The position numbers and the translations under genes are program-made. From Dictyophora rubrovolvata (lineage: Eukaryota; Basidiomycota; Agaricomycetes; Phallales; Phallaceae), in the NCBI GenBank assembly GCA_029959195.1, contig CP114121.1:2480001-2544000 (forward strand): a stretch of DNA of 64,000 bases, read 5' to 3'. The notes under the pieces are model-generated. The model saw only the letters and a list, made by a program, of their open reading frames with translations. It was not told the DNA's origin and searched no databases. This document shows positions 946 to 54,725 of this stretch, piece after piece; positions within the stretch are counted from its first letter, which is position 1, and the number at the start of each line of letters is the position of its first letter.

Positions 946-2070
946 ATGTTGCGTCCTAGTCGTTCCCCTGCCAAGCTGCCTACTTCTCCCGCCAAGCTAC
1001 CTAGTCGTTCCCCCGCGAAGTTACCTTCTGTTCCAAAATTTGTGAACATGCACTCTCATGCATCTTCTCGCGGACATAAGCATCGAGTTATGCCCGATGC
1101 CTACCTAGAGGCGGCTGTCAAACAAATTGGCGACTCCCTCGTCAATCTTGACTTCGATCAATTCTTCACAATCTTCAAACCACACACCCCAGTTTATCAG
1201 TTCATAACGGAACTGGACTTAGAGTCTTTTAGAGACTCACTTTCAAGGGCATTCCCAGGCGAAGATATGGATTCTTCAAATGTGCAGGACACAATGGACG
1301 CTAAAAACGCGTTGGATGAGGACCTTGTTGCTTTTGACTGCATGTTCAAAAGAATGGAGGATAAAGGACTCGACGTTGGCAATACGCGGAAGTCTTTGGC
1401 TTGGGTTAGAAAACGTAACAGTGAAACATTCGCTAAATTGCCAGAGCCTGAGACGAAGTGGTTTGGTAAGAAATCCCTTGGACTTCCGAACCAAGCCTTT
1501 CCTGCTTTCATCCCGGATACTTATCCGGATGAAGTGACCACCATCAACGTTCCTGTTCCAAGATTTGATCCAGCGAAGGGCTGGCCACAGTCAGAATGTA
1601 ATCGTCATCCTGAGACTTCAAAGTCGGGAAATGCAGCGTCCAAACCCCTGGCTGCAAATAACGGAGCCAATCGAATGGCTCATCTTGACGACCCTCGGGT
1701 CGCCCCACTTCCTACCGTTCCAGGACAAGATGAAAGACAGCGGACCTACGTAAGGTCCAGGAGTGGTGCCATGCCCTCTTCCAATCCCTCTCCCACTCCC
1801 TCTCGGGGGTCGACCCACTCCCGGGCTCACCATGATACCCCTCCTGCGCCTATCTATTACCATCACTCCGTTGCTCCTCCATCGCCTCCCCGCCGACATG
1901 AATGTTATCCAGTTTCATTCTCACCTCAAAGGTCCCACGCAACTTCTTCCTCTCAGCCTCATTATTATCAGGGCTACTATGAAGAATCGGATCCCAACCT
2001 ACCCTTTATTCCTCCTTCCCCATATTCCCAGTCTCCCGACCGTCACAGCCCCAGGCAACGTAGATATTGA
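946..2070 (+). CDS. P-family protein, copy 1 (unknown function)
   Basis: Single-exon gene of about 374 residues; I do not recognise the family. The N-terminus is basic with repeated SPAKLP units. A conserved block of about 130 residues follows, with LEAAVKQI, NLDFDQFFTIF, VYQF, FRDSLSRAFP, GLDVG and SLAWVRKRN stretches, predicted mainly helical. The C-terminal half is rich in Pro, Ser and His and ends with a YYQGYYEES/LPFIPP segment. I chose the ATG at 946 (MLRPSRSP) because four paralogues start with MSR at this point. The open frame does run further upstream, but that part covers a TATA-like CTTAAATA at 838-845. Near-identical mirror copy at 47,583-48,704; this copy has about 12 extra bases just before the ATG. 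No signal peptide or membrane segment is seen. Confidence 0.8.
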   Translation: MLRPSRSPAKLPTSPAKLPSRSPAKLPSVPKFVNMHSHASSRGHKHRVMPDAYLEAAVKQIGDSLVNLDFDQFFTIFKPHTPVYQFITELDLESFRDSLSRAFPGEDMDSSNVQDTMDAKNALDEDLVAFDCMFKRMEDKGLDVGNTRKSLAWVRKRNSETFAKLPEPETKWFGKKSLGLPNQAFPAFIPDTYPDEVTTINVPVPRFDPAKGWPQSECNRHPETSKSGNAASKPLAANNGANRMAHLDDPRVAPLPTVPGQDERQRTYVRSRSGAMPSSNPSPTPSRGSTHSRAHHDTPPAPIYYHHSVAPPSPPRRHECYPVSFSPQRSHATSSSQPHYYQGYYEESDPNLPFIPPSPYSQSPDRHSPRQRRY

Positions 2071-2660
2071 TTGTCCAAGAAGACACATGGCGACTGGCGG
2101 TTGGCTAGTTCTCCATGCAGCTATTCATGTTATCACAGAGTACTTTACACATGCAAATAGTAGTTTTTAGTAACTCTCAAATACCGTACATACATACCTT
2201 CATCCTACAAATATAATGAGCCAAACTCGAAAGTTAAACCCCATCGTAAATATTATATACTGCCATTCTCGACCATCTCTTGATATTGACGAAAATTACC
2301 ATGGGTTATTCGATATTTTAAGTCAGCAACGCAACATGTTGGATTTTGGCAGCAGGGCATTGTGATGACATTTCGCGAAACATCGATGCGCGTCCTTGTT
2401 GGGAGATTACGGGCTATCTTTACATAAATTTGGGTAGGGCTGGCTTGCTTTTCCAGTTTCGATGTTCAAGACATTGTGCGACGAGGTAAGTGATTATTTT
2501 TGCATATAATCCATGATCGCATTTTTGGCAAATCGTGTGAACACAAATGACGGGACTCAACAATGTTTTATAAGGAAAGAAGATCATTTACCAAGAACAC
2601 ATGTAAATTGAGGGCTATAGTATACTGTTCAACATTGGGATTAAACATGATTCATCAACA
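2071..2660. other. spacer, no gene seen
   Basis: AT-rich spacer between the convergent 3' ends of P copy 1 and U copy 1. A stretch near 2,330-2,490 recurs at about 6,440-6,600 and, inverted, near 47,230-47,340, so it belongs to the duplicated unit. No coding signal is seen. Confidence 0.6.
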
Positions 2661-3562
2661 TTAGTTAAGAACATTGTTGTTAACTCGAGACAGGGACGAA
2701 TGCTCAACGTATCCACAAGACAGATAAGTAACCTTGTAACGAACCTTCTCCACAACATCAACATTATACACGACCTGATTCAATGGCGTTTTATCGGTTG
2801 CCAGGCCAGCTCCGAGGTTGCCGTCCTATTATGCAAGTCGACCGTCAAAGATGAGTAACATAAAAATGGTGTTTCACGACTCGGAGGATACTACTTACTC
2901 TATCATTGCTCAAAGTCAGGGACCTGACTTCAATCATGGCTCCTTCCCCAAATTGTACTGTCAAGTTGTCTTTGCCACTCCCATGGCAGGGTGCGATCAA
3001 ATATGCTATATCTCCTTTCTGAGAAATAAATAAACAAGATGAATGAGGATAAACTCGATCCAATGAACTCACTGTCAACTTGTCTTCAGAACGATATCCA
3101 TACCCACGACGAGGATCCAGTGTAAGTAGATCGTGGGGTACCTCCTGGATTGAACCCACGACAATGATTCTTTCCTTGAAAATTTCCTTTGTAAGCCTAT
3201 ACATTGCGTTGTTACTGAGGAGTGGAATATTTCCCCCCTAGTCATCATTAGACTATCGAAAACTTCTCGTATAGGTCCAAATGTTTAAACCCACTGATGC
3301 GCCCTTCCTTATTCTTTGATAAACGTGAAAAACTGTCCCAGATGGGAGTGTTGTGATGCCAGTTGGCCGGATAAAACCAGAGCCTTTAAACGAAATAAAT
3401 GGGATAGGTAGAGTGCTCTCGACCAAATTCCCTTCCTGAATAAAAAAATCATCGAGAAAGTAAGACATAGTATTCAGAAGCAGAGTTTACCTCGAACGCC
3501 GATGGGACTTGAGGTCTGAATTTGGGAGGGCGAGGAATGCTTGCAGGTAAACGGAAAGTCAT
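2661..3562 (-). CDS. U-family small protein, copy 1 (unknown function)
   Basis: Intron-containing gene of about 200 codons in five conserved blocks; I do not recognise the family. Blocks in order: an N-terminus MTFRLPASIPRPPKF up to SAFE; EGNLVEST to GTTLPSGTVFHV; MYRLTKEIFKERIIVVGSI with VPHDLLTL; GDIAYLIAP to GAMIEV; and DGNLGAGLATDKTPLN to the stop. The last four have a beta-rich look. Most introns have clean GT-AG borders, but the phases of blocks 2 and 3 do not match in the simple splice. Block 3 begins with an in-frame ATG in every copy, so two separate small genes are possible. A TATA-like GATATAAAGG precedes the first ATG. Mirror copy at 45,955-46,857. Confidence 0.55.
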
Positions 3563-4668
3563 GAGGAGGGACGTAAATGCAGTTGGAGCTGAGACTTTAA
3601 TGCATTTGTGAAGAGCAGAACACGCCTTTATATCTCGTCTTCCTTCCTGATCAGAAATCGGGGAAGTGTGGTACTCGGATTCCGGAGCGACTAGCACAAA
3701 GAGGGTATCTGGCCAAAGTACAGATCGAATCTCATTTCATCGACCTTCCAGATCCACTTTAGAGCCAAATTGGACATAAATCAAACGGATCTCGTTGTTC
3801 ATGGTGTCTTGGGAGCTCGCGACCAACTCCGAGTATTAATATTACTAAAATGGATACTCAAACTCAAACTCTGGGGAAGAAATCATTTCGAGTTGTGGCA
3901 TGTCCGATTTAAGACACGTCTGAGTTTAATAGAGACTGCACATGTACGCCACAAGCGTATTATCAGAAATTGCAGTTTGAAGATGACATTATCTTGATGG
4001 AAAAATAACGCACAGCTGATTGGAAATGTCGGCACCGTTTCCCCCCAACACATCCATAATCTTGATCCACGAACCGGACAGCGCTAATGAATGAAGTTCT
4101 CAGTGTAATAAAAACCGGCGGGATAAGTCGACCTTGAGAAGCTTTCGAAGGTCGTGGATTGTCGAAAACTCTGGCCAGTGGCTTTTATGGCCAATACTAA
4201 TTGTGTAAGGCCAAACATACCGGCATTATATTTTCCTTAGTCATGTTGTCCATAAGTGGCTTCATTTGGCTCAATGCAGTGCAACACGTGAAAAATACTG
4301 ACCAGCGACCGTGGAAGAGGAGTCAGTTACCGATGCAACTTCTTTTTCTATGATGAGAACGAGATGAAACCGATCAGCTTCGACCGCTTGGCAAAAGTTC
4401 TTTGGCACCGCAGAAATGGCCTGAAAATGAATTAAGATTATCAAGCCATATGCCGAACCAGACCTAATCTTGATGAAATGGATGCAAGGTCAATTTGCCT
4501 CGCAATTTTTATGTTGTATTCTCGATTTGTATATTTGAAGAAATATATGCTGGGCGCACATTTACCAAGATACAGACCCAAAAATAGCCATTATGGACCT
4601 AACACCTTGTACACACGCAGACTCCATAAAATTCTGGTAGAACAAAAAATATTGAGTACTCATACTTT
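3563..4668. other. spacer with kinase-end relic
   Basis: No intact gene. The part near 4,560-4,650 resembles the 3' end of the neighbouring kinases (the LYTR..LRR region) in decayed form. The part near 4,280-4,430 matches segments near 7,600-7,700, 11,400-11,530 and, inverted, 45,000-45,200. It appears to be debris of an older tandem array. Confidence 0.5.
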
Positions 4669-6231
4669 CTAGCTTAAAAATGTCTTCAACGCCCTAATGG
4701 ACCGTCTAACGTACGTGACAAACCGAATACCCCAGTATGTCGTGCATAGCCGTCGCAGAGTTCTGGTATACAAACTTGGCATCGGAGCACGGAGGCTGCT
4801 CCATTTGGTCAAAAATTCATCGGGAAGGCCATGCCATCGATCGTGTTCCCCCGGTTTCCAGCCATGAATATACGTACGTGGGGTGACACTAGTTGCAAGC
4901 TGAATTGGTGTCAACTCTCCGTACATTTGTTCGAAGAAAGTGAGAGCTTGTGAGGAATTAAATCTTCGATCTAGATTATCTGTGATTAAACTATCAAGAA
5001 AGGGGGCTAACATCGGGACTATTGGGATACAATGCTGTTTGCATGTCAACGGTTGATACACATGTATAGCTTATGGACGTCACCTGAAAGTATATGCACA
5101 GTTTGATACCGATACATCCCATTTCAAAAGGAAGGGGTCGTAATCGAGCTCCCCCTGACGTGTATCATTTGGCCGTGTTATATTTGTGATCTCAAAGGAT
5201 CTCCAAGACGGTAGACGCCGCTCTTCGGAGGAAAGCATCAGGGACAGGTCGAAATCAAAAATGGCAAATATCAATTTTCCTTCTGATAGCAATAGAGGTC
5301 GCAACCAGTTGTCACGTCTAATACGCCCATAGCAGCCAAAGTGATTGACTAGAATATTTGCTTCTGTTAAATCCTATTCAAAAAGGCTATTTCAATTAAT
5401 GATCCTCAATAGATTCACTGACTTACGCGGTGGATAATCCAGTGTGTGTGAAGAAAGTTTACCCCCTACAGTAATCCAAGGTCAGGAAAATCAAGGTATA
5501 TAGATATTGGAATCACCTTCAAAAGGCAATGAATAAACCTCATAATTTGTTCAATTGTATGGAGTTCGCATGGACTCTCGCCCCACCTGAAAAATGTCAA
5601 AACGGTCTCCAGCGTAAGAAACAGGTACGCACCTGGGCATGATAGCGAAGGATTGACCTCTATATTCGAGGATGTCAATAATCGGAAGTATGCAATTTTT
5701 TTCAGCTTCTTCTTTGTGCTCGTATAACCATCGATTGATGCGTTTTTCCTCCGTGTCTTCCAGTACCTCAAGTCTCTTGATCGCTACATGTCGACCTTGG
5801 CGGTCTTGTGCGAAGCAGATCTTCGTCTATTGAAACGTCAGATTATGTACATGAGAGGAAGAAGTACTGACTGTAAGGTTAGCCTGAAATAGGTGTGGAA
5901 CCTCATAGGGGTTGTTACCGCCGTAGTAAGCATACGGCCATTCAGGTGGTTCATCCTTGCGTCCGTGCGCACCGGTCCACTTGAACATATCATCTTCAGT
6001 CTTATTTAATGGTTGACAAACGCCCCATTCCTTCAACGCATAAAGCGTGTATCCTTGTTCCAAAAACCAATCACGCAACTCTTCCCAAATACCAATGATT
6101 TCGGCATTTTTAGCACGCAACGCTTCTTCAGTCTGTTTATGACAATTATGAGGTACGTTGAGATATATATGATTGTGACTTACATAGTCATCCAAATAAA
6201 CGGGTTTTTCGCGTTTACGAAACCAGAACAT
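4669..6231 (-). pseudogene. FunK1-like protein kinase, copy A, frameshifted
   Basis: Multi-exon kinase of the same build as copy E. N-terminus MFWFRKREKPVYLDD; then EIIGIWEELRDWF, a PPEWPYAYYGG motif, a kinase lobe with KVCFAQD..GRHVAIKRL (beta-3 Lys), the HR|D catalytic loop split by an intron, and DFDLSLML in place of DFG. Compared with copies B and E, one base is missing near 5,130 in the DYDPFLFEMG segment. This shifts the frame before the last exon, so the C-terminal lobe would be lost. I chose the ATG at 6,231 (MFWF) by comparison with the paralogues; a longer open frame starts only with GTG. Probably a recent pseudogene, unless the base is a sequencing error. Confidence 0.75.
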
Positions 6232-6269
6232 ATGGTGCACAAGAGTTTGAGAGTACGAAGTTCAAAAGT

Positions 6270-6360
6270 AACCAACAACGAACGTAACGCGCGCCACGAT
6301 AACGTGACGTGATCGGTCCTGAATTCTGCCCGGCACTCTTCGGCTTGGGCTTGGACATAA
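6270..6360 (-). promoter_or_regulatory. conserved kinase promoter block, copy A
   Basis: Upstream of kinase A there is a GTAACGCGCGCCAC stretch followed by AACGTGACGTGATCGGTCC and CGGCACTCTTCGGCTTGGG. The same order of elements lies upstream of kinases B, C and E. TGACGTGA resembles a bZIP/CRE core. Confidence 0.5.
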
Positions 6361-6775
6361 AGCGCTTAATCGTAAAAACGACCTGTGTCTTTTTCTGTTC
6401 GCCCTAATGAAGTTTACGACAATTATCACAGTGTTATTCAACATTGTAACACAATATATTGGAATTCTGGCAGCAAAGCAATCCTGTAGTGACGACGTTA
6501 TGCAAAGCATCGATGTCTCTTCTTAAGAAGAGTTTATCGTTGCGTACAACTAACTCACTTTTCTGAATCCAGTTTCGATATTCAAGGCATCGTTCGATAG
6601 TGAGCCGTGTTTTTTTTATAATCGAATCCCTGGTAAATTGAGCAGACACAAATAATGGTACACAACAATGTTTTATCTCTCTAAAAAAGGTTAATATTTG
6701 AAAGAAGCAAAACACATGTATATTGACAGCTATAGTATGCTGTTAGACATTCAAGTTAACCACGATTCAGCAATA

Positions 6776-7308
6776 TTATCTAAGAACATTGGTATTAATT
6801 CCGTTGAGCAATTCATGCTCAATGTATCCAGAAGACAGATAAGTAGCCTTGTAACGAACTTCCTTGATAACATCAGCATTATATATTACATGATTTAAAG
6901 GTGTTTTATCCGTTGCCAAACCAGGTCCGAAGTTACCGTCCAAAGTGCGGCCTGAGGTCTATCATGCCGGCCGACGGTCAGAACTGAGTGGAATGAAGGG
7001 AATAAGATGGTTTCCAATACGTACTCTATTGCTCAAAGGCTGAGACTTGATTTTAATCATGGTCCCTGCTGGGAATTGCGTAGACAAGTTGTCAGAACTG
7101 ATTCCCCCACGGGATGCCATTAAATATGCTATGGCCCCTTGCTAGGAAGTATTGGGTGATGAAGTGGGGCGAACTTCGCTAATGAACTCACTTTCCATAT
7201 GGTTCCAGAACGGCTTCCATCACGAGTAATTGAATCGTGAGGTACCCCCTGGATCGAACCGACGACGACGATTTCCTCCTTTATGATTTGCTTTGTAAGT
7301 CTATACAT
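6776..7308 (-). pseudogene. U-family gene, copy 2, lacking 5' exons
   Basis: Keeps only blocks 3-5 of the U family, starting at MYRLTKQIIKEEIVVVGSI and ending with LLNGINTNVLR and a stop. Blocks 1 and 2 are absent, and upstream sequence is unlike the other copies. The retained parts stay mostly open, so this could be either a truncated copy or evidence that block 3 starts its own gene. Confidence 0.55.
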
Positions 7309-7886
7309 ACATATCTAACTCCATGAACCGGACAGCGCTCATAATAGAGCATTTAGGTCTAAAGTTCTCATCGGTATAAAAAAAATGATGAAGTGACACA
7401 TGACAATCACCCATGGTCTGAATCTTTTCAAGCAAGTATCTCTTCTGTTTAGACGGCAAAATTGACCCTACCAGTGCAAAGCTTTATCAATGAACTGCCA
7501 ACTTTTCTTTGCCAATGGCTTTATGGCCGATGCATAAATATAATCCCGAGATGAATTTTTTTTAGTCATGTTGTCCAGAAGGACTTCACCGGGAACCCTG
7601 AATGCAGTGCAAAATGTAGACAATACTGGTCATAAAAAAGAAGTCAGTTAGGACCGATACGAACTTCTTTGTTCAGGGTGAGAATGAGATGAAACCCATG
7701 CAAGGGCGTGCATGGCTATAATTACTTTATATTCATGCTTCGGAAATTACTGGGCGCGTGTCCTTTTTCCGGTTATGGCAAATAGAAAAAAAATGTTTTC
7801 TAAACGATCGCCTAACGCCTCGTGCCAGCCACAATCCCAACAGATTGTACATACGTGTGGAGAAATTTTGGTAGAACAGAGAACAA
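7309..7886. other. spacer with kinase-end relic
   Basis: Non-coding spacer of the duplicated unit. Segments near 7,320-7,500 and 7,600-7,700 recur at about 4,060-4,420. The stretch 7,800-7,880 resembles a decayed kinase 3' end. No gene is seen. Confidence 0.5.
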
Positions 7887-9474
7887 TTAACGACTTGTAT
7901 TTTTCCAACTTGAAAAAAATGTCTCCAACGCTCTAATGGTCCGCCTTGTGTACATGACAAACCGTATACCCCAGTATGTCGTACATAGCCGTTGCAGAGT
8001 TCTGGTATACAAACTTGGCATCGGAGCACGGAAGCTGCTCCATTTTGTCAGGAATTCATCGGGAAGACCATGCCATCGGTCGTGTGCCCCCGGTTCCCAG
8101 CCATCAATATACGTGCGTGGGATGACACTAGTCGCAAGCTGAGTTGGGGTCAACTCTCCGTACATTTCTTCAAAGAAAGCGAGAGCTTGAGAGGAAGTAA
8201 ATCTTCGATCCAAATTATCTGTTATTAGACTATCCAGGAAGGGGGCTAACATCGGGACCACTGGGATACAATGCTGTCTGCATGTCGATGGTTGATACAC
8301 ATGTATAATTCACGGACCGCACCTGATAGTATATGCACAATTGGATACCAATACATCCCATTTCGAATAGGAAGGGGTCGTAATCGAGCTCCCCCTGACG
8401 CGTATCATTTGGCCGTGTTATATTTGTGATCTCAAAGGATCTCCAAGACGGTAGACGCCGCTCTTCAGATGAGAGCATTAGGGATAGATCGAAATCAAAA
8501 ATGGCAAACGTCAATTTTCCTTCTGATTGCAATATAGGTCGCAACCAGTTGCCATATTCCGTACGGCCATAGCAGCCAAAATGATTTACGAGAATATTTG
8601 CTTCTGTTAAATCCTATACAAAAGTACTACTCAATTAATGATCCTTCATATTGATTCATTGACTTACACGGTGGATAATCCAGTGTGTGTGAAGAAAGTT
8701 TACCCCCTACCGTATTCCAAGGTCAGGAAAATCAAGGTAGATAGACAATTTTTACCTTCAAGAGGCAATGAATAAATTTCATAATTTCTCCGATTGTATG
8801 AAGCTCGCATGGGCTCTCACCCCACCTAGGGCGTGTCAAAACAGCCTTAGCGCAAAAAACAGGGGCGCACCTGGGCATGATAGCAAATACTTGATCTCTA
8901 TATTCGAGGATTTCAATGATCGGGAGTATGCAATTTTTTTCGGCTTCTTCTTTGTGCTCGTATAACCATCGGTTGATGCGTTCTTCCTCCGTGTCTTCTA
9001 GTACCTCCAGTCTCTTGATCGCTACATGCCGACCTTGACGGTCTTGTGCGAAGCAGACTTTGGTCTTCGCAAAGGTCAAAAAATATGCATGTATGTGAAA
9101 ATGGACATTTACAGTGAGATTAGCCTGGAATGGGTGAGGGACACGGTAGGGGTTATCCCCGCCATAGTAAGCATACGGCCATTCTGGTGGTTCATCCTTG
9201 CGTCCGTGGGCGCCAGACCACTTGAACCTATCATCATCAGTCTTTATTAATGGTTGACTAGCACCCGAGCTTTTTAGCTCGTAAAGCGTGTATCCCTGTC
9301 CCGAAAACCAATCACGCAATTCTTCCCAAATACCAATAATTTCGGCATTTTTAGCAACCACCGCTTCTACAGACTGTTTATAACAATTTTGAGGTGCCCT
9401 AAGATGTATGATAGTGACTGACTTACACCATCATTCAAACAAACGGGTTGATCGTGTTTCCGAAACCAAAACAT
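7887..9474 (-). CDS. FunK1-like protein kinase, copy B
   Basis: Atypical serine/threonine-type kinase of about 420 residues, apparently intact across its exons. It starts with MFWFRKHDQPVCL; then come a conserved amino-terminal domain (EIIGIWEELRDWFSGQGYTL, FKWSGAHGRKDEPPEWPYA) and the kinase lobe. A canonical Gly-rich loop is not obvious. Visible motifs are HVAIKRLEVLED (Lys and alpha-C region), INRWLYEHKEEA, MKFIHCLLK, FLHTHWIIHR|DLTEANILVNHFG (catalytic Asp and Asn; an intron falls between R and D) and FAIFDFDLSLML (metal-binding Asp). The C-lobe carries FRAPMPSLYTRTLQRL. HRD and the DFD in place of DFG suggest the basidiomycete-expanded FunK1 or a related agaric-specific group, but I cannot place it firmly. 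The upstream promoter block is shared with its paralogues. Confidence 0.75.
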
Positions 9475-9509
9475 ATGGTGCAGAATTGGTGCAGAGTCTG
9501 AGAGTACGA

Positions 9510-9625
9510 AGCTCAAAAGCAACCAACGTCACAACACGCAACGCGGTGTGATGCGCGTCGCAATAACGTGACGTGATCGGTCCCGAGTTCCGCTGTCCGG
9601 CACTCTTCGGCTTGGGCTTAACAAG
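9510..9625 (-). promoter_or_regulatory. conserved kinase promoter block, copy B
   Basis: Contains a TGATGCGCGTCGCAATAACG stretch, then GTGACGTGATCGGTCC and GTCCGGCACTCTTCGGC. Sits 40-150 bases upstream of the kinase B ATG and matches the other kinase promoters in order and spacing. Confidence 0.55.
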
Positions 9626-11583
9626 GCATAGAAGTAGAAATGACTGCTGTCTGTTCGCAGCAACTGTCCAGTGCTTTCCACGCGGGGCATTTTTGATCGC
9701 GATAAGCCATTGTTGTTACAGGGACGATTCGAAGCATTGATAATGATATAATGATAAAAAAATTAGTTTGGACATGTCGGAGCATGTTGCATGAGTCTCG
9801 AATCCCCATAAACAGGACTTCTTGACACATGGGTTTCATGCCCAGCCATTCTTCTACTTTCTTGGTTTTGACGGTGAGAATGACTTCTATATTTTTGCAC
9901 ATACATAGATCACCCCTTCAGAAATATGTACACCCGTGACCCAATTATTATAAGCTCGACGTAATAAAATTTGTGCCTCACATGTAAGTAAAAGCCCACA
10001 TCGATTTCTGCCACCCACTCGTAAAATCAATTTCCTGTTCTTCTCGACATAACATAGTAAGAGCTTGTCTGTTATGAAAAAGTATACTCCCTCATACTAG
10101 GACTCTAGGAGCCAGTACAATCATATCTGTTTGAAACGATCGGTTATGTCTACTTAGATACATTGGGGATTCTGAGAATGATTTTTCCGTACAATTCGCG
10201 ACGGACCTTAATTAAGGTCACAAAAAAAGAATCGTAACTAATATGATGTCAGATACAATTTGGCGAGAAAAAGACCAAAAGTGTATTGGACGGTATTTTG
10301 ATGAAGCCATTGCTGCAGCAGGCCGGGTAAATACGAAGCATCTATGAAAATATAAGTCTGTGAAGTAATTTATCAGAGTACGGAGGATGTATTATCTCAC
10401 TCATTTTCTATTAAAATTTTCATTGTGACGTGGGTTCTCCGAGTCAGGAGCACTTCGAAAGCAATTGATTGAGGACAATTCGCGGTTTCCCTCTCGGCTT
10501 TACAAATGTCTGGAAAATCTCGGGTCCAAATCGGGTCCAAATTTATCATGCTATGAGCGCATTCCATTCACCATAATGGATATTCGTGCGAATACACTGT
10601 TTCTCAGGTTATCAGATCAGATCAAACTGTTGTTCATATTGGGGTGCTTCCCCACACAGTGTAAATTTTGCTGCTGCAGTCGTCCGAAAATTTATTGAAA
10701 TTAATGTAAGGAAGTATTTGAAGAGCTTACCGTACAACGTACAATCTAGTTATTCAATAAGTCAGAACTAATTGGTCATCTGTTGATGATACCTTATCTT
10801 CCTCAAGAATATTTCCAATGAAACATTCCGGAAAAAGAGCTGGACACTTATTTGGGGATAGCGCTTCGAAGCATTTTAAGAATTTCCGGTGATCACCGAT
10901 GCAGTGCCAGATCCTGCGGGATCCGGGCATCGTTCAACAACCATGAGTTTAAACCCTTCCTGTGCACCGGCGCGATATATGTAAGACTCGCTTCTAGATC
11001 CGGGTGCCAACGCTTCTTAACTTCAGATTACGGCAATTCAGGTGTCGACACGATGGAAGGAAATCGGACGGCCAAAACTGGTGTCCGAATGCAAACGATC
11101 AGGGTAGTGGGATGTGAGAACTGACCTTATTCATTTTAAGGCACTCTGAACTTTGACAAGTACTTCTTGAATATTTTTCCGATTGTTAATTGCATTGCCT
11201 CAAGGTTCGAACTCCTGAGTCCATTGACTAAATTAAACGAACAAGCTTCGGAGGAAGCAGTTGTTTTTCATTCCAAACGGTTATGAGGTCTCTTCGACTT
11301 GATTCTACACAATTATCTTGATATTTATCCCTAAATTTCGGGACAGAAAACGGCCTTGCAAAAGTTTTTATGGACCTCTCCAATGTCTGTTCATTGCAAA
11401 CTTGAACGCAGCTTTCCACGTGAAAAATACTGGAGAACCAGTTACCAATACTGTCAATGCCGGCTTCGACGTCCTGCCCAAAGCTCTGTGGCACCAAAGA
11501 AGCGGCCCAGATGGCTTCAGCGAAAATTGAATGTATTAAGCAAGATATCTCATTGCAATGTTATGTGAATGAGTGAACAAAGT
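9626..11583. other. relic-rich spacer, mirrored at about 41,150-43,030
   Basis: No intact gene. The segment is almost the same, in reverse complement, in the right arm, down to short open frames such as 9,618-9,902 (-) and 42,723-42,935 (+). Those frames are probably open by chance, since no family is recognisable. It includes a decayed actin exon at 10,160-10,330 and a region near 10,450-10,900 that also recurs near 31,280-31,700. Confidence 0.6.
10160..10330 (-). pseudogene. decayed actin exon fragment, left copy
   Basis: The reverse complement contains an intron-acceptor-like TTAG followed by sequence that translates near YDS, then a shifted stretch, then RRELYGKIIL. This matches [22 protein letters not shown] of the two actin genes, with several changes. 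Mirror copy at about 42,290-42,480. A solitary remnant of an actin gene that once sat beside the kinase unit. Confidence 0.65.
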
Positions 11584-11656
11584 TCATGTCGCACCGCAGA
11601 TGCTAGAATAATTTTTTCGGCGTATGCCTAGTTTGAAAAAAACAAAACCTTCAACC

Positions 11657-43125: not shown

Positions 43126-43138
43126 TGTACTTCTTACC

Positions 43139-45954: not shown

Positions 45955-46857
45955 ATGACCTCCCGTCGTTTATTTGCACATGTTCCTCGCCCTCCCCCGT
46001 TCAGACCTGTCCCATCAGCATTCGAGGTAAATTGCCCCGCTTCTGAAGATGCTTCTGAATATTAGAGTCTTACTTTCTCGATGTTTTTTCTATTCAGGAA
46101 GGGAATATGGTTGAGAGCACGCAACCTATCCGATTCGATTCCTTTGAAGGCTCTGGTTTCAATCAACCTATTGGCTTCACCACACTCCCATCTGGGACAG
46201 TTTTTCAAATTTCTCAAAGAATAAGGAAGGACGCATCGGCAGGTAAACATTCGTTCGGGCCTACGCGAGGAAGTTTTTGATAGCTTAATGGGATGACTAG
46301 GAGGAAAATGTTCCACTCCTCAGTAACAACGCAATGTACAGGCTTACAAAGGAAGTTATCAAAGAAAGAATTATTGTCGTGGGTTCGATCGACGGGGTAC
46401 CCCACGATCTACTTACATTGAATCCTCGTCATGGATACCGTCCTGAAGGCATGTTGGAAGTGAGTTCATTGGATCAAGTTTATCTTCATACATAATATCT
46501 TTTCTCTACAGCAAGGACATATAGCATATTTGACGGCACCCCGCGGTGGGAGCAGTATGGACCAATCGACTGCGCAATTTCCGAAAGGAGCCATGATTGA
46601 AATCAAATCACTGCCTATGAGCAACAGAGTAAGCCATGCACAGCCCTATCTTTATGTTGCTCACCTTTGACTGTCGACTTGCATAATAGACATCGGGCCG
46701 CACTTTTGACGGCAACCTCGGGCCTGGTTTGGCAACTGATAAAACACCATTAAATCATGTAATATATAATGCTGATGTCCTGGAGAAGATTCGTTATAAG
46801 GTTACTTATCGGTCTTCTGAATTCGTTGAGCATTCGTCCCTCGAGAGAGTTATGTAA
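45955..46857 (+). CDS. U-family small protein, copy 3 (unknown function)
   Basis: Best-preserved U copy, up to about 210 residues in five blocks: MTSRRLFAHVPRPPPFRP to SAFE; EGNMVESTQPIRFDSF to RIRKDASAG; MYRLTKEVIKERIIVVGSI to EGMLE; QGHIAYLTAPRGGSS to KSLPMSNR; TSGRTFDGNLGPGLATD to the stop after SLERVM. Borders GT-AG are clear, with donors gtaaat, gtaaac, gtgagt and gtaagc. The join of blocks 2 and 3 does not keep phase with the evident donor and acceptor, so block 3, which starts with ATG in all three copies, may begin a second small gene. I do not recognise the family; no signal peptide or membrane span. Confidence 0.55.
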
Positions 46858-47582
46858 CAATAATGTTCTTAACTAATGATGTTTAACTCGGATGTTAAAC
46901 AGTATGCTATAGTATAGTCCTCAGTTTCCATGTGTTTTGATAAATGATCTTCTTTCCGAATCTTCTCTTAATAAAAGATTATTGTGTTTATTTGTGTCTA
47001 CACGATTTGCCAGAAATGGGACCATGGAAAATGTGCAAAAAACCAATTACTGAGCTCATCGAACAATTGCTGGAACACGAAATTGGAAAGCGAGTTGATT
47101 GTAGATAAATCCATAATCGTCCAAGGAGACATCAATGTGTGTGTAAATCTGTTAAGTCCCTGGGGGCTGAGCCCTAAATATGTCTCGTTGAGATGAATCG
47201 CGTCATTTCTCGTGTGCTCTTCGCTCGACAGGGGCGTAAGACATCGATGTTTTACGAAACGTCGTCACAATGCCAAGTTTGCTACCAAATTTCAACATGT
47301 TGTGTTATTGATTTCGAATATAATAGACTCAATAACGCTTCGTGAATCTCAAGAGATGGTCGAGAATGTCGGAATATACGATAAGGTTTACCTTTTAGAA
47401 CGTCGATCGAGTTTAATATGATTATACCAGTAGGGTTAAGAATGTGATTTTAGAGTTATTAAACACTGTATACTATTCAGGCTGGAGTATGTATAAAGTA
47501 CTGTATAATCACTGAAATAACATGAAACATTGAGTAAACAACTAGGCAATCGCCAGTGCATGTGTCACTTTTGAAAATGAAT
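46858..47582. other. spacer, mirror of 2,071-2,660
   Basis: Convergent spacer between U copy 3 and P copy 4; AT-rich, partly shared with the left arm. No gene seen. Confidence 0.5.
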
Positions 47583-48704
47583 TTATCTACGTTGCCTGGG
47601 GCTTTGATGGCCAGGAGACTGGGAATATGGGGAAGGCGGAATGAAGGGTAGGTTGGGATCCGATTCTTCATAGTAACCCTGATAATAATGAGGCTGAGAG
47701 GAAGAAGGTGCGTGGGTCCTTTGAGGTGAAAATGAAACTGGATAACATTCATGTCGGCGGGGAGGCGATGGAGGAGCAACGGAGTGATGGTAATAGATAG
47801 GCGCAGGAGGGGTATCATGGTGAGCCCGGGAGTGGGTCGACCCCCGGGAGGGAGTAGGAGAGGGATTGGAAGAGGGCATGGCACCACTCCTGGACCTTAC
47901 GTAGGTCCGCGGTCTTTCATCTTGTCCTGGAACGGTAGGAAGTGGGGCGACCCTTGGGTCGTCAAAATGAGCCATTCGATTGGCTCCGTTATTTGCAGCC
48001 AGGGGTTTGGACGCCGCATTTCCCGATTTTGAAGTCTCAGGATGACGATTATATTCTGACTGTGGCCAGCCCTTCGCTGGATCAAATCTTGGAACAGGAA
48101 CGTTGATGGTGGTCACTTCATCCGGATAAGTATCCGGGATGAAAGCAGGAAAGGCTTTGTTCGGAAGTCCAAGGGATTTCTTACCAAACCACTTCGTCTC
48201 AGGCTCTGGCAATTTAGCGAATGTTTCGTTGTTACGTTTTCTAACCCAAGCCAAAGACTTCCGCGTATTGCCAACGTCGAGCCCTTTATCCTCCATTCTT
48301 TTGAACATGCAGTCAAAAGCAACAAGGTCCTCATCCAACGCGTTTTTAGCGTCCATTGTGTCCTGCACATTTGAAGAATCCATATCTTCGCCTGGGAATG
48401 CCCTCGAAAGTGAGTCTCTAAAAGACTCTAAGTCCAGTTCCATTATGAACTGATAAACTGGGGTGTGTGGTTTAAAGATCGTGAAGAATTGATCGAAGTC
48501 AAGATTGACGAGGGAGTCGCCAATTTGTTTGACAGCCGCCTCTAGGTAGGCATCGGGCATAACTCGATGCTTATGTCCGCGAGAAGATGCATGAGAGTGC
48601 ATGTTCACAAATTTTGGAACAGAAGGTAACTTCGCGGGGGAACGACTAGGTAGCTTGGCGGGAGAAGTGGGTAGCTTGGCAGGGGAACGACTAGGACGCG
48701 ACAT
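47583..48704 (-). CDS. P-family protein, copy 4 (unknown function)
   Basis: Single exon, 373 residues, near-identical to copy 1 with only scattered changes. Begins MSRPSRSPAKLP with three SPAKLP units, then the family core and the Pro/Ser/His-rich tail with HYYQGYYEES and LPFIPP. The MSR start is supported by copies 2, 3 and 5. The frame is open a further 67 codons upstream, but a TATTTAAG box at 793-800 of the 48,000s lies about 90 bases before MSR. The high similarity of copies 1 and 4, against spacers that differ more, suggests selection or conversion. Confidence 0.82.
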   Translation of the reverse strand: MSRPSRSPAKLPTSPAKLPSRSPAKLPSVPKFVNMHSHASSRGHKHRVMPDAYLEAAVKQIGDSLVNLDFDQFFTIFKPHTPVYQFIMELDLESFRDSLSRAFPGEDMDSSNVQDTMDAKNALDEDLVAFDCMFKRMEDKGLDVGNTRKSLAWVRKRNNETFAKLPEPETKWFGKKSLGLPNKAFPAFIPDTYPDEVTTINVPVPRFDPAKGWPQSEYNRHPETSKSGNAASKPLAANNGANRMAHFDDPRVAPLPTVPGQDERPRTYVRSRSGAMPSSNPSPTPSRGSTHSRAHHDTPPAPIYYHHSVAPPSPPRRHECYPVSFSPQRTHAPSSSQPHYYQGYYEESDPNLPFIPPSPYSQSPGHQSPRQRR

Positions 48705-50722
48705 GAGTGTTGAATCTCCAAGATCAAGACAAGGGAAGTAATGAATAGGGTGAAAGTTGGGGTGTGTTGCTTTTGTCGTATTTGGCTTCAGGTATTTAAG
48801 CATTTGAACATGTGTCGTACCGAATGCAGTATTCGTCCGTGGTCCCATACTTATGAAGACACATGCTTTTTGACCAACACGTCCGGGCGTCCTGGGTTGT
48901 TTCATCCAGAAGTTGTGGACCGATCCTCAATTAATTACGATTGGCGTGTTATTGCATGGCACGGTGCCCGTTTCTCGTGAAATGTTACGGAAGTTTTTCC
49001 CATAATCGCAGGAGCTGTGTAGGCTCTCGGTGCCGCAAACCGCCCCGACTAAGTAGCGATCCAATGAACTAGAAATTCATTCTTTTCTCTCCTCTATGCA
49101 TCTGCCTCCCGCGGCTACGTGTGCATTGCCGGGAAGTGATAAATGTCCCTATGCGCGTTCCTTTATGTCTCGTTTAATATCTTACTTTTCTCCTCGCGGT
49201 CTTCCTTTGTTATCCATGCTCGTATTATCTTCTCAAAAAATGATAGATCTGAAGATCAAGATAGGATTCAGATCATATCATCTTCTACTCCTCGTGACGT
49301 TCGCCAGGTTTATATTATCTGAAGCACAGACAGGTATCCACGGCTCTGAGAAAAAATAGTCTGAAAGCCCGTGTCCAGAGGCTTGGAAACCGAAACAACA
49401 CAGCTGGAAACATTCCCCACGAAGTATTGTCATGCTACAAGCGTCTCTCAATCACAGTGCTCGGCGTGCATTGTTTTATCATTGCCTGATCCCTATAAAT
49501 ATGCGAAGGACAGTCTGAAAAATAGGCTTGTTTTTCAACTCATCTCCAAAATTTCGAGCCACTTGTCTGATTATTTCATGATTCTAGTCCGCAGAGTTAG
49601 GTGCTAACGTAGTACGCTCAGCGTTTTGTTTGAATGTAAACATTGACCACAAAAGAAAAGAAAAACGGCTATGTACTAAAGGATTTACGGCAGTCAACTA
49701 GTCACGTGCTGGTTTTCTTGCTGGCGCCGGCGCTCTTTTAATTGATTTTCGTTCCAGTTTGACAACGTAGTACACGTTCGAAATTTTGAACATTCATCCT
49801 GGTCGTGAATGAATGATTTCCTAGGACATGCTAAAATACGCGTCAAATACATGAAACCCGTTGCATCGAGGAAAGGGGGTCCTTCAAAATGCGCATTCTC
49901 AGTGCATTCCTGGTTTCAGGTAAATTTAACTAGCTGTCTTCTTGATCTCCTGAGAATACAGATCTTTGGAAGTCCAGGAAATCTGGAAATGCTCCATTAT
50001 TTGACTTTGCTGACATACAGGAGAAGTGACTTTACCGTAGAAAGATATGTCTCGGATGGATAAACCCCCACTTACCATCGGTCGCCTACAAGAGAATGAC
50101 TTCTTAGGAATTTTCTGAGAAACCAAAAGGTTAATAGCGTCCCGAGTTCAGAGTATTTGATCCCAAATATGTACCTGAAAGGTACGTTACCACTTCTCTC
50201 CACCAACTGCCAATGAGCCATGTTTTTGATGATTCAACTTTGATTGTGGCGTTCCGCACTATTTTCAGCGTCAACCTTCCTTTCCCTTCGAATTATCCAA
50301 TGGTATCATTGACACATTTCTCAAGCGAAAAATAGGACAGATATGAGTGACAGATCCACTTGATTGAAATTGGCTCCTGCTGTTCTAGTAATATCTGTGC
50401 TGGTGGAAATGCCACTAGAAAGCTCAAGGACGAGGCTTCTTGTCCCTAGATCGATGAAACATTGATAGAGGAAGACGTTTGTCGGAACAAAGGTCAAAAA
50501 TTGTTCTCTCTCTATATTCTCAACTAATAGTCTTCCCCAAAATATTCAATACTTTGACGTAACATCATAAATCGAATCCGCTGATTTTTTCGAAACGAGA
50601 GCTAAATCTGTTTCAGAAAAAAGCGCAGCGGTCTCGCTTACCTTTTGTATCTCTCGTCATGATCTGGTTTTAATGGAAATCTAACCTATAAAAGCTCATA
50701 TCTTTCAGTATTGAACTTTAAA
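48705..50722. other. P copy 4 upstream region and arm boundary
   Basis: 48,705-49,620 is shared with 1-945 and ends the visible right arm. From 49,621 to 50,722 the DNA is unique, AT-rich, and shows no gene; it ends in the promoter of the protease gene. Confidence 0.55.
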
Positions 50723-53001
50723 ATGCTCACAAGGAACATCTGCATACTTCTTGCTTTTGCAGTTATTGCATGCACTAAACCTATCTCTCATTCGGTCATA
50801 CATGAACAACGAGATAGCGTGCCAAATAGGTTCACAGAAAAAGGTCCAGCAACCAATACTACCATGCTAAGCTTGCGGATCGCCTTGACTTCTAACAATT
50901 TGGATGGCTTAGAAGCTGTGGTATATAAAAATGCATACCGCGGCAACGGCGTTTTCAAGGATCATCTCACAAAAGAGGAGGTAAGTCGTTAATTTAAGAT
51001 GCACATCTTCATTGTTAGACTCAAACTGACTCTAAGGTTGGATCATTTGTCTCCCCTACCACGGAAACAACTACGAAAGTGACCGAGTGGTTGTCTTCAA
51101 ATGGTGTTAACTTTACCACGAGAACGCCTGCTGGTGATTGGCTGCAGATCAATTTGGATGTCGCCACTGCCAATCAACTCTTCAATGCCAATTTTATGCT
51201 GTTTAGCGACGATTCAACCGGAGAAGAAGTGATACGGACCTCGTCATATTCCGTTCCTGCAGAATTGCAACCTCACATTCAGTTGATTCATCCCACTGTC
51301 ACGTACGGTATATCCAGCCGGCGGATGTTTTGGAAACTTACCATTGTCTCAGATTTCCTATAAATGTCAAACCGCCCTCCTTGACGTTTACACCGAAGTC
51401 AATCACCACCAAAGTCGACACGAACATTACTTCCAGAGCAGTTCCTTCGACGTGTAACGTTGGTGAAGTTACCCCTGCTTGCTGTAAGGGTTTCACTCTG
51501 CTTGACAGCCACTCGTCTGTCTGTTTACATCGTTTCAGTATGCAGTGGCAGCCCTTTATGGTATACCTTTAACTACGGCCGCTCAAACTACCAGTCAGTT
51601 AGCGATCGCTGAATTTGGTGGTCAATTCGCTCAAAAGGCTGATCTCTCCGTAAGAAAGGTTTAGCTTGTTACGTCGTCCGTGCTGATTCAACTCTCTACC
51701 ATCAGACATTCCTTAAGGATTTTACTCCGAATATTCTTTCTACGGTTGGCTTTAGCCTTCAAACTATTGATAATGGTAGCAATCCCCAAGGCCCAAGGGA
51801 TGCCGGAATTGAAGCTGTAAGTTTGTGTCTAATGTATACATAATATCATTCTCACTTGTACCTCGTGAAGGATATAAATGTGGAATATACCATTGGGTTA
51901 GCCGTGAATATCCCAGTGACAGTTATTTCAGCCGGAGCAAATAATACCGACGACCTCGACGGATTCATCGATCTCACAGAATTCCTTTTGTCTGAGTCGA
52001 GTGTGCAGCAAGTTTTGTTAATACCATTCACTTTTAATGAAGCTGATGTACCTGCTTCTCTGGCCCAGTAAGTGATAATTGTGCTCGAAATGCGCGTCTT
52101 ATTATGAGCGGCCACAGAACGTTATGCAATAATTACATGCAACTAGCGGCTCGTGGCGTGTCTGTAATCGTTCCAGCCGGTGATGGAGGTGTTTCTGGCT
52201 CAGAGTCTGAAACGTGCACAACATTCGTACCTACTTTCCCTGCGACATGTCCATTTGTAACATCCGTGAGTGAACTTTCAAGATAATTTATCTTCCTCAG
52301 TTTCCTCAATTTGGAGAACGTAACTAGGTCGGAGCTACCCAAGGTTTCGGTCCCGAAACACCATTTCCAAATAACGCAGGCGGGTTTTCCAACGTCTTTC
52401 CAGTACCATCATATCAATGCACCGCTGTTTCGCAATACCTCATCACCCTAGGGTCTACAAATGCCGGTCTATTCAACCAAGTAAGTGATACCAGGCAATT
52501 ACTAGTAGCTCCATATTGTGCGGAAGGATTATCGTTTGCCTAGTCAGGACGAGGCTTTCCAGATGTCTCGGCTCAAGGGGTAAATATACCCATTGTAGTG
52601 GAAGGAGAAACGGGTACCGTCGATGGAACGTCCCTTTCGGCCACAATTTTTGCTAGTGTCGTTGCTTTACTTAACGCTGATCTTATTTCGAGTGGAAATC
52701 CACCGCTAGGCGTACTGAATCCGTTAATATATGAATTTTCAAGTGCATTCAATGATATTACATCAGGGGACAATCCAGGATGTGGTACCAGTGGTTTTCC
52801 AGTACGTTCCTTTTGAGTCAAGTTTATGATTTCGGAAAGAAGCTCACACTGACGCATTCTAGGCCACGATTGGTTGGGATCCGGTCTGTATCATATTTCG
52901 TTAAGCCTTTGGATGTAAGTACTGACATCTTTCATTCTTAGGTCAGCGGGGTTGGCACTCCCAATTTTGCCGAGTTAGTTCTATCACCACACGGATTCTA
53001 A
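50723..53001 (+). CDS. sedolisin-family (S53) tripeptidyl-peptidase-like protease, active-site variant
   Basis: Multi-exon gene of about 560 residues. The ATG at 50,723 gives a secretion signal (MLTRNICILLAFAVIACTKP); an open frame to 50,711 has only TTG. A Pro-kumamolisin propeptide follows, then the peptidase: LYGIPLTTA, GGSNPQ-type DNGSNPQGPRDAGIEA, VPAGDGGVSG (oxyanion Asp), FPATCPFVTSVGATQGF, SGRGFPDVSAQG, DGTSLSATIFASVVALLN (nucleophile Ser) and the calcium site region NDITSGDNPGCG...WDPVSGVGTPNF. Introns include 50,981-51,036, 51,303-51,352, 51,484-51,538, 51,650-51,705 and 51,817-51,870. In the usual EANLDxQY motif the catalytic Glu is present (GIEA) but the Asp four residues later reads Asn (EADINVEY). 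Normally a secreted acid protease; here activity may be reduced or lost. Confidence 0.88.
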
Positions 53002-53714
53002 CTTGACGTAGCGAACATCCTTGCAATAAGCTTGTATCGACTTTGCGTAAAAAATGCAATGGCACGATAACTAAATCATCTTCTCGATTATCCTTAAACA
53101 TGATCATTGTCATTACGTAAATAATCCTACTTTTTCCACTACGAACATATCTCGCTTTGTCCGCAATTTGTTATAATTCCGAGTGCCGCCTTCTCTGTGC
53201 GCTTGCCCCCAAATGGCTTCACTCGAAAAGGGCATGTCAATTTTCTCGTCAAATTTGATGTTGGTAGTTTTGCGAGCCGTTATGTAGTATTGAGTTCCCG
53301 GTTTTTTCCTTTTCATTGCCGTGATAAGCCTTAGCATGTATCAAGGTATCTCTGTTCGATTAGCGAAAAGTTCAGTGGCATCTATGTTCTGACGTTGCGA
53401 TCATCTGAATCTCCAAGAAACCCTCAACTGTGTGGATCATGTTGTATCGTGTTGGGACTCTTCAGAAACAAAAGACAATTTTTTCCAACGTGGAGTGGAT
53501 AACATTCTTAATCAGTTGGACTAGTGAGGATATGTTGCCAACATTCTGTCGTCCTGATTTGTTTTTTGTTTAGAATAGACTATATTGTAGTTCTCTAACA
53601 CATTTTTGTTATCATGCTACAGGATGTCTAAGGTAATAAGGGACCAAGGAAAAAAACTGATTATTTTTATGATGATTAATGAAAGACCGTTGAAGGATCA
53701 TTTCAAGGGACAAA
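53002..53714. other. spacer, no gene seen
   Basis: Convergent spacer between the protease and P copy 5. AT-rich; the open frame at 53,113-53,337 has no support. Confidence 0.5.
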
Positions 53715-54725
53715 TTATGACTTGAACTTTCGTGATGATGATTTGGCTGCGTGATGACCCGTTAAAGTTTCATAATACTCAGAATAGTACGACGGGTGGG
53801 GAGGAATAAAAGGGGCGTTCTCATCGGTAGGCTTGAGACATGAACGAGGGCTAACTGTTTTGGGGGAAACGATAGAGGGAACTTCGTCAGGAGGGGTAGC
53901 TGAGTGAGCAATAAACGACATACTGGAATTGTCCGCCTTTCTGACATACACTTGTGTTCGTCCAGGCGTTTCGTGAACAGGGTGCTGGGAAACGGTGAAC
54001 GAGTTCCCTTGCCAAGCTTTACCATCCGGGCTCCGAACAGCATTATTGTGCATAGCTGAGCGGTGTGACTGCAGAGGGGTCTGAGAAGGGTCGTGCTTAT
54101 AGTGCGACGCGCCAGCCAAGAATCGAGTGTAAATCTCCTCCGGAAATTTCTCTGCACTAGGCGCATTCGGAGAAGTGGTAGAATGTTCCTGATCAGCCCA
54201 TCGAACGCGTTTTGGCGTCGCAGGAAGCGGATTTCGGTCCAAAGGATGGCGCATTGGCCTGGCATTGAGCTCAAGATACGCTTCCCGGTTACGCCCGGCC
54301 AGCCATGCCAAAGCTGACCGTACATTGCCAACGGGGCGTCCAGTCTGCTCAGAATATTTGAACATACCGTCCATATAAACAAGTTGTTCGTTCAAACTGG
54401 TTTTGGCTTCCATTGCAGCCCGCACTTCTTCGTCAGCAGCATCAACCCTGACGAAGGTAAACGCGTTCAGCGCAATCCTCCGAAACTGATCGGGATCGGG
54501 TTTCCATACAGGAGAATAGACGGGGGTATGAACGGGAGAGAGTGTGACGAACTGATTGAAGTCGAGACTGCTGAGGGCGTGTGTGATCTTCCAAAGAGCC
54601 GCCTCCAGGACAGCATCATCTGGATTTACTGGTCGCCCACGTTCCGGCAAAGTTTGGTGATAAGGGGAAACGCTTGCGGCGTTTTTAGGAATGGAAGGTA
54701 ACTTGGCAGGAGCGCGACGAGACAT
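53715..54725 (-). CDS. P-family protein, copy 5 (unknown function)
   Basis: Single exon, 336 residues, starting MSRRAPAKLPSIPKNAA. The core is diverged but alignable: AVLEAALWKITHALSSLDFNQFVTL, FRRIALNAFTFVRVDAAD, VYMDGMFKYSEQTGRPVGNVRSALAWLAGRN. The tail is rich in Ser, Pro and His and has NAPFIPPHPSYYSEYYE, the counterpart of the FIPP tail in copies 1 and 4. It lies outside the inverted duplication, so it predates or escaped it. A TTTAAATA box at 54,813-54,820 is about 90 bases upstream. Confidence 0.75.
   Translation of the reverse strand: MSRRAPAKLPSIPKNAASVSPYHQTLPERGRPVNPDDAVLEAALWKITHALSSLDFNQFVTLSPVHTPVYSPVWKPDPDQFRRIALNAFTFVRVDAADEEVRAAMEAKTSLNEQLVYMDGMFKYSEQTGRPVGNVRSALAWLAGRNREAYLELNARPMRHPLDRNPLPATPKRVRWADQEHSTTSPNAPSAEKFPEEIYTRFLAGASHYKHDPSQTPLQSHRSAMHNNAVRSPDGKAWQGNSFTVSQHPVHETPGRTQVYVRKADNSSMSFIAHSATPPDEVPSIVSPKTVSPRSCLKPTDENAPFIPPHPSYYSEYYETLTGHHAAKSSSRKFKS

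What the first reader, a model, noticed from the sequence alone, without database searches (positions are those of the whole stretch)
946..54725. P family: five paralogues of an unrecognised single-exon protein family
Genes at 946-2,070, 34,072-34,938, 39,403-40,269, 47,583-48,704 and 53,715-54,725 share a 130-residue core (LEAAVKQI...DFDQFF...AFP...MFE..GLDVGNIR.SLAW) with variable low-complexity tails. All start MSR or MLR and use a TATA box. A clustered expansion with conserved core and variable tail suggests a lineage-specific family under diversifying use. I recognise no known domain.
Basis: partly seen in the sequence, partly recalled or inferred. Interest (0 to 1): 0.85.

Follow-up and report, generated by a model that had tools for sequence, protein, structure and literature searches.

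The report
Unnamed stinkhorn gene family, eleven copies
A stinkhorn mushroom carries eleven related genes for a small, unrecognised protein with a helical core and a floppy tail, ten of them in one stretch of one chromosome; the two most alike copies appear to be kept in working order by selection, but what the protein does is not known.

Summary
All five genes are complete single-frame ORFs at the stated coordinates and true paralogues (weakest pair 85 bits; best of 5,000 shuffled comparisons 33). Contig lengths identify the genome as the veiled stinkhorn Dictyophora rubrovolvata; both ends of chromosome 5 carry telomere repeats. The family has 11 members, 10 within 183 kb of chromosome 5 and one on chromosome 2, plus decayed P2-like copies at four further places. 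All 11 have a TATA-like box 80-111 bp before the ATG. Pfam, NCBIfam, PHROGs, PDB and viral fold searches give nothing credible. AlphaFold gives a six-helix core (pLDDT 76) with disordered flanks. dN/dS of copies 1 and 4 is 0.20-0.34: purifying, not diversifying. Tails vary, but five members share PFIPPxP near the C-terminus. Copies 1 and 4 lie in 12-15 kb arms of an inverted duplication that also carries a second local repeat family, kinase-like by eye only. Best reading: a birth-and-death family of non-enzymatic intracellular adaptors; the anatomy is shown or predicted, the adaptor role inferred. Restriction to one lineage could not be tested: no other fungal genome was searchable.

The parts
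946..2070 (+). P1, 374 aa, intact ORF (MLR start)
   Evidence: 97% identical to P4
1099..1431 (+). P1 predicted folded core (residues 52-162), six helices
840..845 (+). P1 TATA-like box TAAATA, 106 bp before the ATG
34072..34938 (-). P2, 288 aa, intact ORF; decayed relatives on C7, C9 and C11 (two)
34546..34881 (-). P2 core (placed by alignment to P1)
35038..35043 (-). P2 TATA-like box TAAATA, 105 bp before the ATG
39403..40269 (-). P3, 288 aa, intact ORF with a shorter tail; nearest to P1/P4 (60-61% in the core)
39832..40158 (-). P3 core (residues 38-146), the chain modelled in the core prediction
40352..40357 (-). P3 TATA box TATATA, 88 bp before the ATG
47583..48704 (-). P4, 373 aa, intact ORF, inverted duplicate of P1
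48219..48551 (-). P4 core (placed by alignment to P1)
48793..48798 (-). P4 TATA-like box TAAATA, 94 bp before the ATG
53715..54725 (-). P5, 336 aa, intact ORF; closest relative P11 on C2 (77% in the core)
54276..54614 (-). P5 core (placed by alignment to P1)
54813..54818 (-). P5 TATA-like box TAAATA, 93 bp before the ATG
1..11926 (+). left arm of the inverted duplication (begins 3.4 kb left of the window, at C5:2476568); holds P1 and kinase-like copies, one of them an extra tandem copy
40800..53063 (-). right arm of the inverted duplication (C5:2520800-2533063); holds P4, a kinase-like copy and a kinase-like fragment
4629..6352 (-). repeat-family copy K1, kinase-like by eye only, in several reading-frame pieces; related copies at 7863-9619, 11679-13192, 32086-33555 and 43138-44719
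   Evidence: Pfam and PDB searches negative

Best explanation
The five genes belong to an 11-member protein family of the mushroom Dictyophora rubrovolvata that has grown and decayed by DNA-level duplication, mostly around one stretch of chromosome 5. Members are intracellular proteins (no hydrophobic leader seen by eye; no predictor was run), with a TATA-type promoter of common descent, a predicted six-helix core of about 110 residues and disordered flanks; five of the longer members carry a short proline motif (PFIPPxP) near the C-terminus. Most likely they work as non-enzymatic adaptors: the helical core binds one partner and the disordered Ser/Pro-rich tail, with its PxxP-type motif where present, binds another or is phosphorylated. 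Copies differ mostly in the tail. Shown: family, ORFs, promoter similarity, purifying selection on P1/P4, decayed copies. Predicted: core fold and disorder. Inferred: adaptor role, tail binding, co-regulation. Unknown: partners and biological process.
For: Paralogy far above shuffles. Same 11 members from six queries. TATA-like box at -80 to -111 in 11 of 11; as TAWATA[CG] within -130 to -70 in 10 of 11 against 1.7% of random 60-bp windows of the region (P9 has TATAAACAC); similar sequence follows in most members. The element GACAGAAGCATCAATT, taken from these promoters, has only three genome places at 0-1 mismatch, all P promoters (P5, P9, P11). Core model pLDDT 75.6, pTM 0.65, six helices; full-length P1 has helices only at residues 52-159, and 246 of 374 residues are under pLDDT 50. 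Residues identical in all 11 beyond the start Met are F, F, A, A, K, L, F, L, W, which looks structural rather than catalytic. Purifying selection on P1/P4: 34 differences and no gap in 1,125 coding columns, against 89 differences in 893 aligned columns and 73 gapped columns upstream. PFIPPxP in P1, P4, P5, P6, P11. P2-like copies at four places on C7, C9 and C11 are partial and frame-broken; the C7 copy includes about 500 bp from before the ATG, so copying was at DNA level.
Against: The adaptor role rests on anatomy alone: no partner, expression or localisation data. The core model is built on five sequences, two of them near-identical, and two of the five AlphaFold models were poor (pLDDT about 40); in the full-length model only 29 residues reach pLDDT 70 and pTM is 0.28. 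Some acidic residues are conserved in 10 of 11 members, so an enzyme is not excluded. PFIPPxP is absent from 6 of 11 members. P7, P9 and P10 are short or truncated and may be dying. Low dN/dS in P1/P4 rests on 30 changes.
Confidence: 0.45

Rival explanations
1. A restricted family with no settled molecular role: copies arise by segmental duplication in an unstable region and are kept briefly, with weak constraint, before decaying.
For: Decayed P2-like copies at four places, short P7, P9 and P10, P8-P9 core dN/dS 0.96-1.44, segmental duplications, a Ty3/gypsy insertion and a Tc1/mariner-like transposase ORF in the region.
Against: P1/P4 are under clear purifying selection; P5/P11 on two chromosomes keep full-length frames at 62% tail and 77% core identity with dN/dS 0.42-0.61; a TATA-like box at a similar distance is kept in all 11.
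Confidence: 0.3
2. Domesticated retrotransposon Gag: a helical capsid-like core with a basic N-terminal flank and a proline-rich tail that recalls late-domain motifs.
For: General anatomy only: predicted helical core, basic N-terminus in P1, P3 and P4 (net charge +8 to +10 in the first 50 residues; the other eight members have -4 to +3), PFIPPxP tail motif.
Against: Profile comparison with a 300-residue stretch from the Gag side of the window's own Ty3/gypsy ORF: probability 0.1% (a single sequence against a thin profile, so low power). No retrotransposon family in Pfam. No capsid among the 50 best PDB fold matches shown.
Confidence: 0.04
3. Recognition or immunity module: P proteins and the neighbouring kinase-like repeat family form a co-duplicated pair whose variable tails recognise something (non-self nuclei, parasites).
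For: The two families are interleaved and repeated together in the inverted arms; P2 and a kinase-like copy are convergent neighbours about 0.5 kb apart. All seven genome matches of a K1 piece lie in this window. Two ORFs of another family of unknown function, DUF6535, lie directly to the left.
Against: No match of the K1 piece lies within 8 kb of P5-P11, 7 of the 11 members; joint duplication explains the pairing without function; no evidence of positive selection. Several K copies have stops in the matched piece. STE3 matches are all on C11 and the Homeobox_KN matches on C3 and C7, so the cluster is not at those mating-type candidates. The kinase label is by eye and failed Pfam and PDB searches.
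Confidence: 0.1

Closest known systems
DUF6535 (PF20153), family of unknown function, two ORFs directly left of the window
   Same: Named but uncharacterised family, present in neighbouring copies in the same region
   Different: None of the 9 P members scanned matches PF20153 or any other Pfam family over its cut-off
S23 ribosomal protein family helical bundle (PDB 2rld)
   Same: Highest Foldseek probability among the 50 PDB matches shown (0.90; TM-score 0.55 by query length): a helical protein of similar length
   Different: E-value 0.73 and 8% identity: not significant; likely a generic helical-bundle resemblance
Retrotransposon Gag / domesticated Gag genes (recalled comparison)
   Same: Helical core, basic N-terminal flank in some members, proline-rich disordered part
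   Different: No profile similarity to the window's own element, no Pfam match
Taxonomically restricted gene families made by birth and death (general class, from knowledge)
   Same: Clustered paralogues, truncated and decayed copies, segmental duplication, no known domain
   Different: TATA-like promoter kept across all 11 members; restriction to a lineage not tested

Membership tests
Any Pfam-A family | Profile match over the curated cut-off | tested here: not met
   9 of 11 members scanned (P1-P5; P6, P8, P10, P11): none over cut-off; best match E = 0.038, far below its cut-off. P7 and P9 not scanned
Any protein of known structure | Sequence or fold match | tested here: not met
   P1 phmmer best E 0.7; core profile best E 0.27; Foldseek 0 of 321 PDB matches at E <= 0.001
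Viral or phage protein | Relatives in viral contigs, PHROGs or viral fold library | tested here: not met
   IMG/VR: 166 stretches matched two short peptide patterns, none a relative; PHROGs, 5 window members, best E 0.31; BFVD 0 of 270 matches at E <= 0.001
Prokaryotic family | Relatives in GTDB genomes or NCBIfam | tested here: not met
   GTDB: 299 stretches matched two short peptide patterns, none a relative; NCBIfam, 5 window members, best E 0.15
Retrotransposon Gag | Profile similarity to Gag/capsid | tested here: not met
   hhalign probability 0.1% against one 300-residue stretch of the window's Ty3/gypsy ORF; low power
Mating-type locus gene | Linkage to STE3 receptors or homeodomain genes | tested here: not met
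   17 of 17 STE3 match rows on C11; 5 Homeobox_KN matches on C3 and C7; P cluster on C5. Other homeodomain models not searched
Lineage-specific (orphan) family | Absent from other fungi | not testable with these tools
   No fungal genome other than this one could be searched
Expressed gene family | Transcripts | not testable with these tools
   No reads held; the genome paper used RNA-seq for gene prediction (passages only)

The most novel reading that the evidence does not exclude
P and the interleaved kinase-like family are a co-evolving two-gene module, kept in a large inverted repeat on chromosome 5, that acts in self/non-self or parasite recognition in stinkhorns; the helical P core docks the kinase-like partner and the fast-changing tail sets specificity.
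Probability: 0.07. Interest if true: 0.75.

Novelty: new member of a known kind. Interest (0 to 1): 0.4.

Why it matters
It is a countable case of an unnamed gene family inside one chromosome whose two ends both carry telomere repeats: intact, truncated and decayed copies, a TATA-type promoter kept in all members, and a core without a recognisable relative. That makes it a practical test bed for how new fungal gene families are born and which copies selection keeps, in a cultivated mushroom. It would matter more if a function or a link to the neighbouring kinase-like family were shown.

Tried and rejected
Known domain: Pfam (9 of 11 members), NCBIfam and PHROGs (5 window members each), PDB sequence, PDB fold and viral fold searches were all negative. 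Viral or bacterial origin: no relatives by pattern scans, which use two short peptide patterns each. Gag origin: hhalign against the local Ty3/gypsy element negative. Mating-type locus: STE3 and Homeobox_KN matches lie on other chromosomes. Regulon: an exact pattern joining the TATA box and downstream element found nothing, not even the P promoters, so it tells nothing; the downstream element alone at up to 2 mismatches has 36 places (control, the pattern read backwards: 9), of which the three with 0-1 mismatch and two with 2 mismatches are P promoters; no other genes were added. Kinase identity of the repeat family: not confirmed by Pfam or PDB. Carrier of decayed copies: a roughly 500-bp palindromic sequence flanks the C11 pieces, with weaker matches at C9 and near P5; too few copies to call it a transposon family. 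Subtelomeric location: the cluster lies 162-345 kb from the right end of C5, so not strictly subtelomeric (positions; telomere repeats). Literature, seven searches: 0 papers; 0; 1, the genome paper; 1, listing only; 12, listing only, one of them then read in passages; 3, listing only; 8 of 13,926 listed, listing only. None was specific to this family's sequence, so they do not show that it is absent from print.
Full report
What was checked. The best BLASTP alignment of each pair scores 85 to 736 bits, while five queries against 1,000 composition-shuffled copies never exceeded 32.7 bits. The core is conserved (36-61% identity between window copies other than the P1-P4 pair) and the tail much less (18-43%).

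Which organism. The genome search tool places the window at C5:2480001-2544000 of a 28,239,528-base, 11-contig genome. The lengths of C2, C5, C7, C9 and C11 given by the tools are identical to Chr2, Chr5, Chr7, Chr9 and Chr11 of the Hi-C assembly of Dictyophora rubrovolvata (PMC10411574; passages and section 15 seen). C8 differs slightly (2,397,101 against 2,398,327), as does the total (28,241,566 in the paper); the other five contig lengths were not seen. The species is in Phallales. Chr5 is a single sequence in that table, and both ends of C5 carry TTAGGG/CCCTAA repeats, so the local duplications are not scaffolding joins.

Family size. Six single-protein searches of the genome (P2, P5, P8, P6, P1, P7) each return the same 11 members. 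Ten lie on C5 between 2,409,742 and 2,592,650 and one (P11) on C2 at 535,823-536,881. P2 as query adds 11 match rows in four decayed places: two on C11, one on C7, one on C9; the two on C11 lie in a 3.5-kb inverted duplicate 93% alike, so they come from one event. P5 as query adds a 25-residue tail piece on C8. The tool says its counts are lower bounds. The well-supported groups in the tree are P8/P9/P10, P5/P11 and P1/P3/P4; the joins of P2, P6 and P7 are unresolved. P7 (200 aa), P9 (178 aa) and P10 (274 aa) are short; P10's homology to P8 runs on past its stop.

How copies spread. P1 and P4 lie in the arms of an inverted duplication: C5:2476568-2482388 pairs with 2533063-2527242 at 86% over about 6 kb, and further blocks at 77-87% continue to 2491926 and 2520800, arms of about 15 and 12 kb; the left arm has an extra tandem kinase-like copy. 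P7 and P5 lie 0.6-0.7 kb outside the two arms in mirrored positions and orientation, but share only 42% of core residues; whether they are an older pair is open. The decayed C7 copy matches P2 over about 500 bp before the ATG as well as inside the gene, so the copying was of DNA, not of a processed transcript.

Selection. For P1 against P4 dN/dS is 0.20 (NG86), 0.34 (YN00) and 0.30 (ML). There are 12 nonsynonymous and 18 synonymous changes at 855 and 264 sites, Fisher one-sided P = 1.6e-5. Differences at codon positions 1, 2, 3 are 5, 7, 19; the coding part has 34 differences in 1,125 columns and no gap, the upstream 945 bp 89 in 893 aligned columns with 73 gapped columns, and the 318 bp downstream 104 in 313. 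Gene conversion could also lower divergence in the coding part, but would not by itself produce the bias against amino-acid change. P5 against P11 gives 0.42-0.61 and P1 against P3 0.38-0.45. P8 against P10 gives 0.73-0.92 (tail 0.70-1.07) and P8 against P9 0.66-0.86 (core 0.96-1.44); together with truncation I read this as relaxed constraint. For the most distant pairs synonymous sites are saturated or a method failed, and the estimates are not usable.

Promoter. A TAAATA, TATATA or TATAAA box lies 80-111 bp before the ATG in 11 of 11. The form TAWATA followed by C or G is found in 10 of 11 within -130 to -70, against 1.7% of random 60-bp windows of the 204-kb region. Similar sequence follows the box in most members. 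The shared element, a pattern taken from these promoters, matches the genome with 0 or 1 mismatch at three places only, the promoters of P9, P11 and P5; at 2 mismatches there are 33 more, two of them P promoters. Common descent explains this; it suggests common regulation but does not show it.

Anatomy. AlphaFold on the five window cores gives six helices, pLDDT 75.6, pTM 0.65; two of the five models were poor. On full-length P1 the same helices appear at residues 52-159, at lower confidence (29 residues reach pLDDT 70, pTM 0.28), and 246 of 374 residues are under 50. Residues identical in all 11 beyond the start methionine are F, F, A, A, K, L, F, L and W: mostly buried-type positions, with no invariant acidic, histidine or cysteine residue, though some Glu and Asn positions are kept in 10 of 11. 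PFIPPxP stands 21-41 residues from the C-terminus in P1, P4, P5, P6 and P11; P8 has a different PFKK stretch at a similar place; P2, P3, P7, P9 and P10 lack it.

Known relatives. None over threshold in Pfam for 9 of 11 members, NCBIfam and PHROGs for the five window members, PDB sequences, PDB folds, viral folds, viral contigs or prokaryote genomes. Since no other fungal genome could be searched, I cannot say that the family is confined to stinkhorns; absence from Pfam only suggests that it is not widespread.

Neighbourhood. Interleaved with the P genes is a second repeat family with copies at about 4.6-6.4, 7.9-9.6, 11.7-13.2, 32.1-33.6 and 43.1-44.7 kb; all seven genome matches of one of its pieces lie in this window, some with stops inside. 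Its pieces read VAIKRL, DLTEANIL and FDFDLS, which recall protein-kinase motifs (from memory), but Pfam and PDB searches found nothing, so the label is by eye. P2 and one copy are convergent and about 0.5 kb apart. Two ORFs with DUF6535 lie just left of the window. STE3 and Homeobox_KN matches are on other chromosomes.

Explanation. The data support a real family, at least partly under purifying selection, that grows and decays mostly in one chromosomal neighbourhood, of proteins with a predicted helical core and disordered tails. A non-enzymatic intracellular adaptor is the reading I would bet on, with moderate confidence; its partners and process are unknown. Gag origin, mating-type linkage, and viral or bacterial origin were tested, with the limits stated, and not supported. 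The boldest reading not excluded is a co-duplicated recognition module with the kinase-like family, at about 7%.

Noticed in passing
window 13304-21065: Ty3/gypsy retrotransposon with an uninterrupted 2,343-aa ORF (protease, reverse transcriptase, RNase H, integrase) between flanking repeats 99.6% identical over 280 bp, which suggests a recent insertion. A further match to the repeat lies at C5:2408790-2409122, 0.6 kb downstream of P6.
   Followed up: partly
window 23529-25430 and 36660-38542: Inverted duplication (86%) carrying a partial actin-like gene (173-aa ORFs, Pfam Actin E about 1e-59); a further actin-like ORF is at 22028-22750.
   Followed up: partly
window 25977-27647: 556-aa ORF with one LysM domain match (E 2e-7).
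   Followed up: no
window 62450-63401: ORF with a BCS1-like AAA lid-domain match (62913-63401, E 4e-8), preceded by an ORF with a long asparagine-rich run (62450-62860).
   Followed up: no
C11:509255-509750 (L027:3256-3751), C11:579240-579778, C9:686694-687038, window 56024-56252: Roughly 500-bp palindromic sequence beside the decayed P2-like pieces on C11, with weaker matches beside the C9 piece and 1.3 kb upstream of P5 in the window; low copy number.
   Followed up: partly
C5:2465932-2468487 and 2471158-2473614 (L038, L039): Two long ORFs with DUF6535 directly left of the window.
   Followed up: no
C5:2575750-2576796 (L043): Tc1/mariner-like transposase ORF (DDE_3, HTH_Tnp_Tc3_2) inside the P cluster region.
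   Followed up: no
C11:864346-874372 and 1012125-1013087: 17 STE3 pheromone-receptor match rows, a likely B mating-type region; Homeobox_KN matches in pairs on C3 at 2.064-2.067 and 2.113-2.114 Mb, a possible A region.
   Followed up: no
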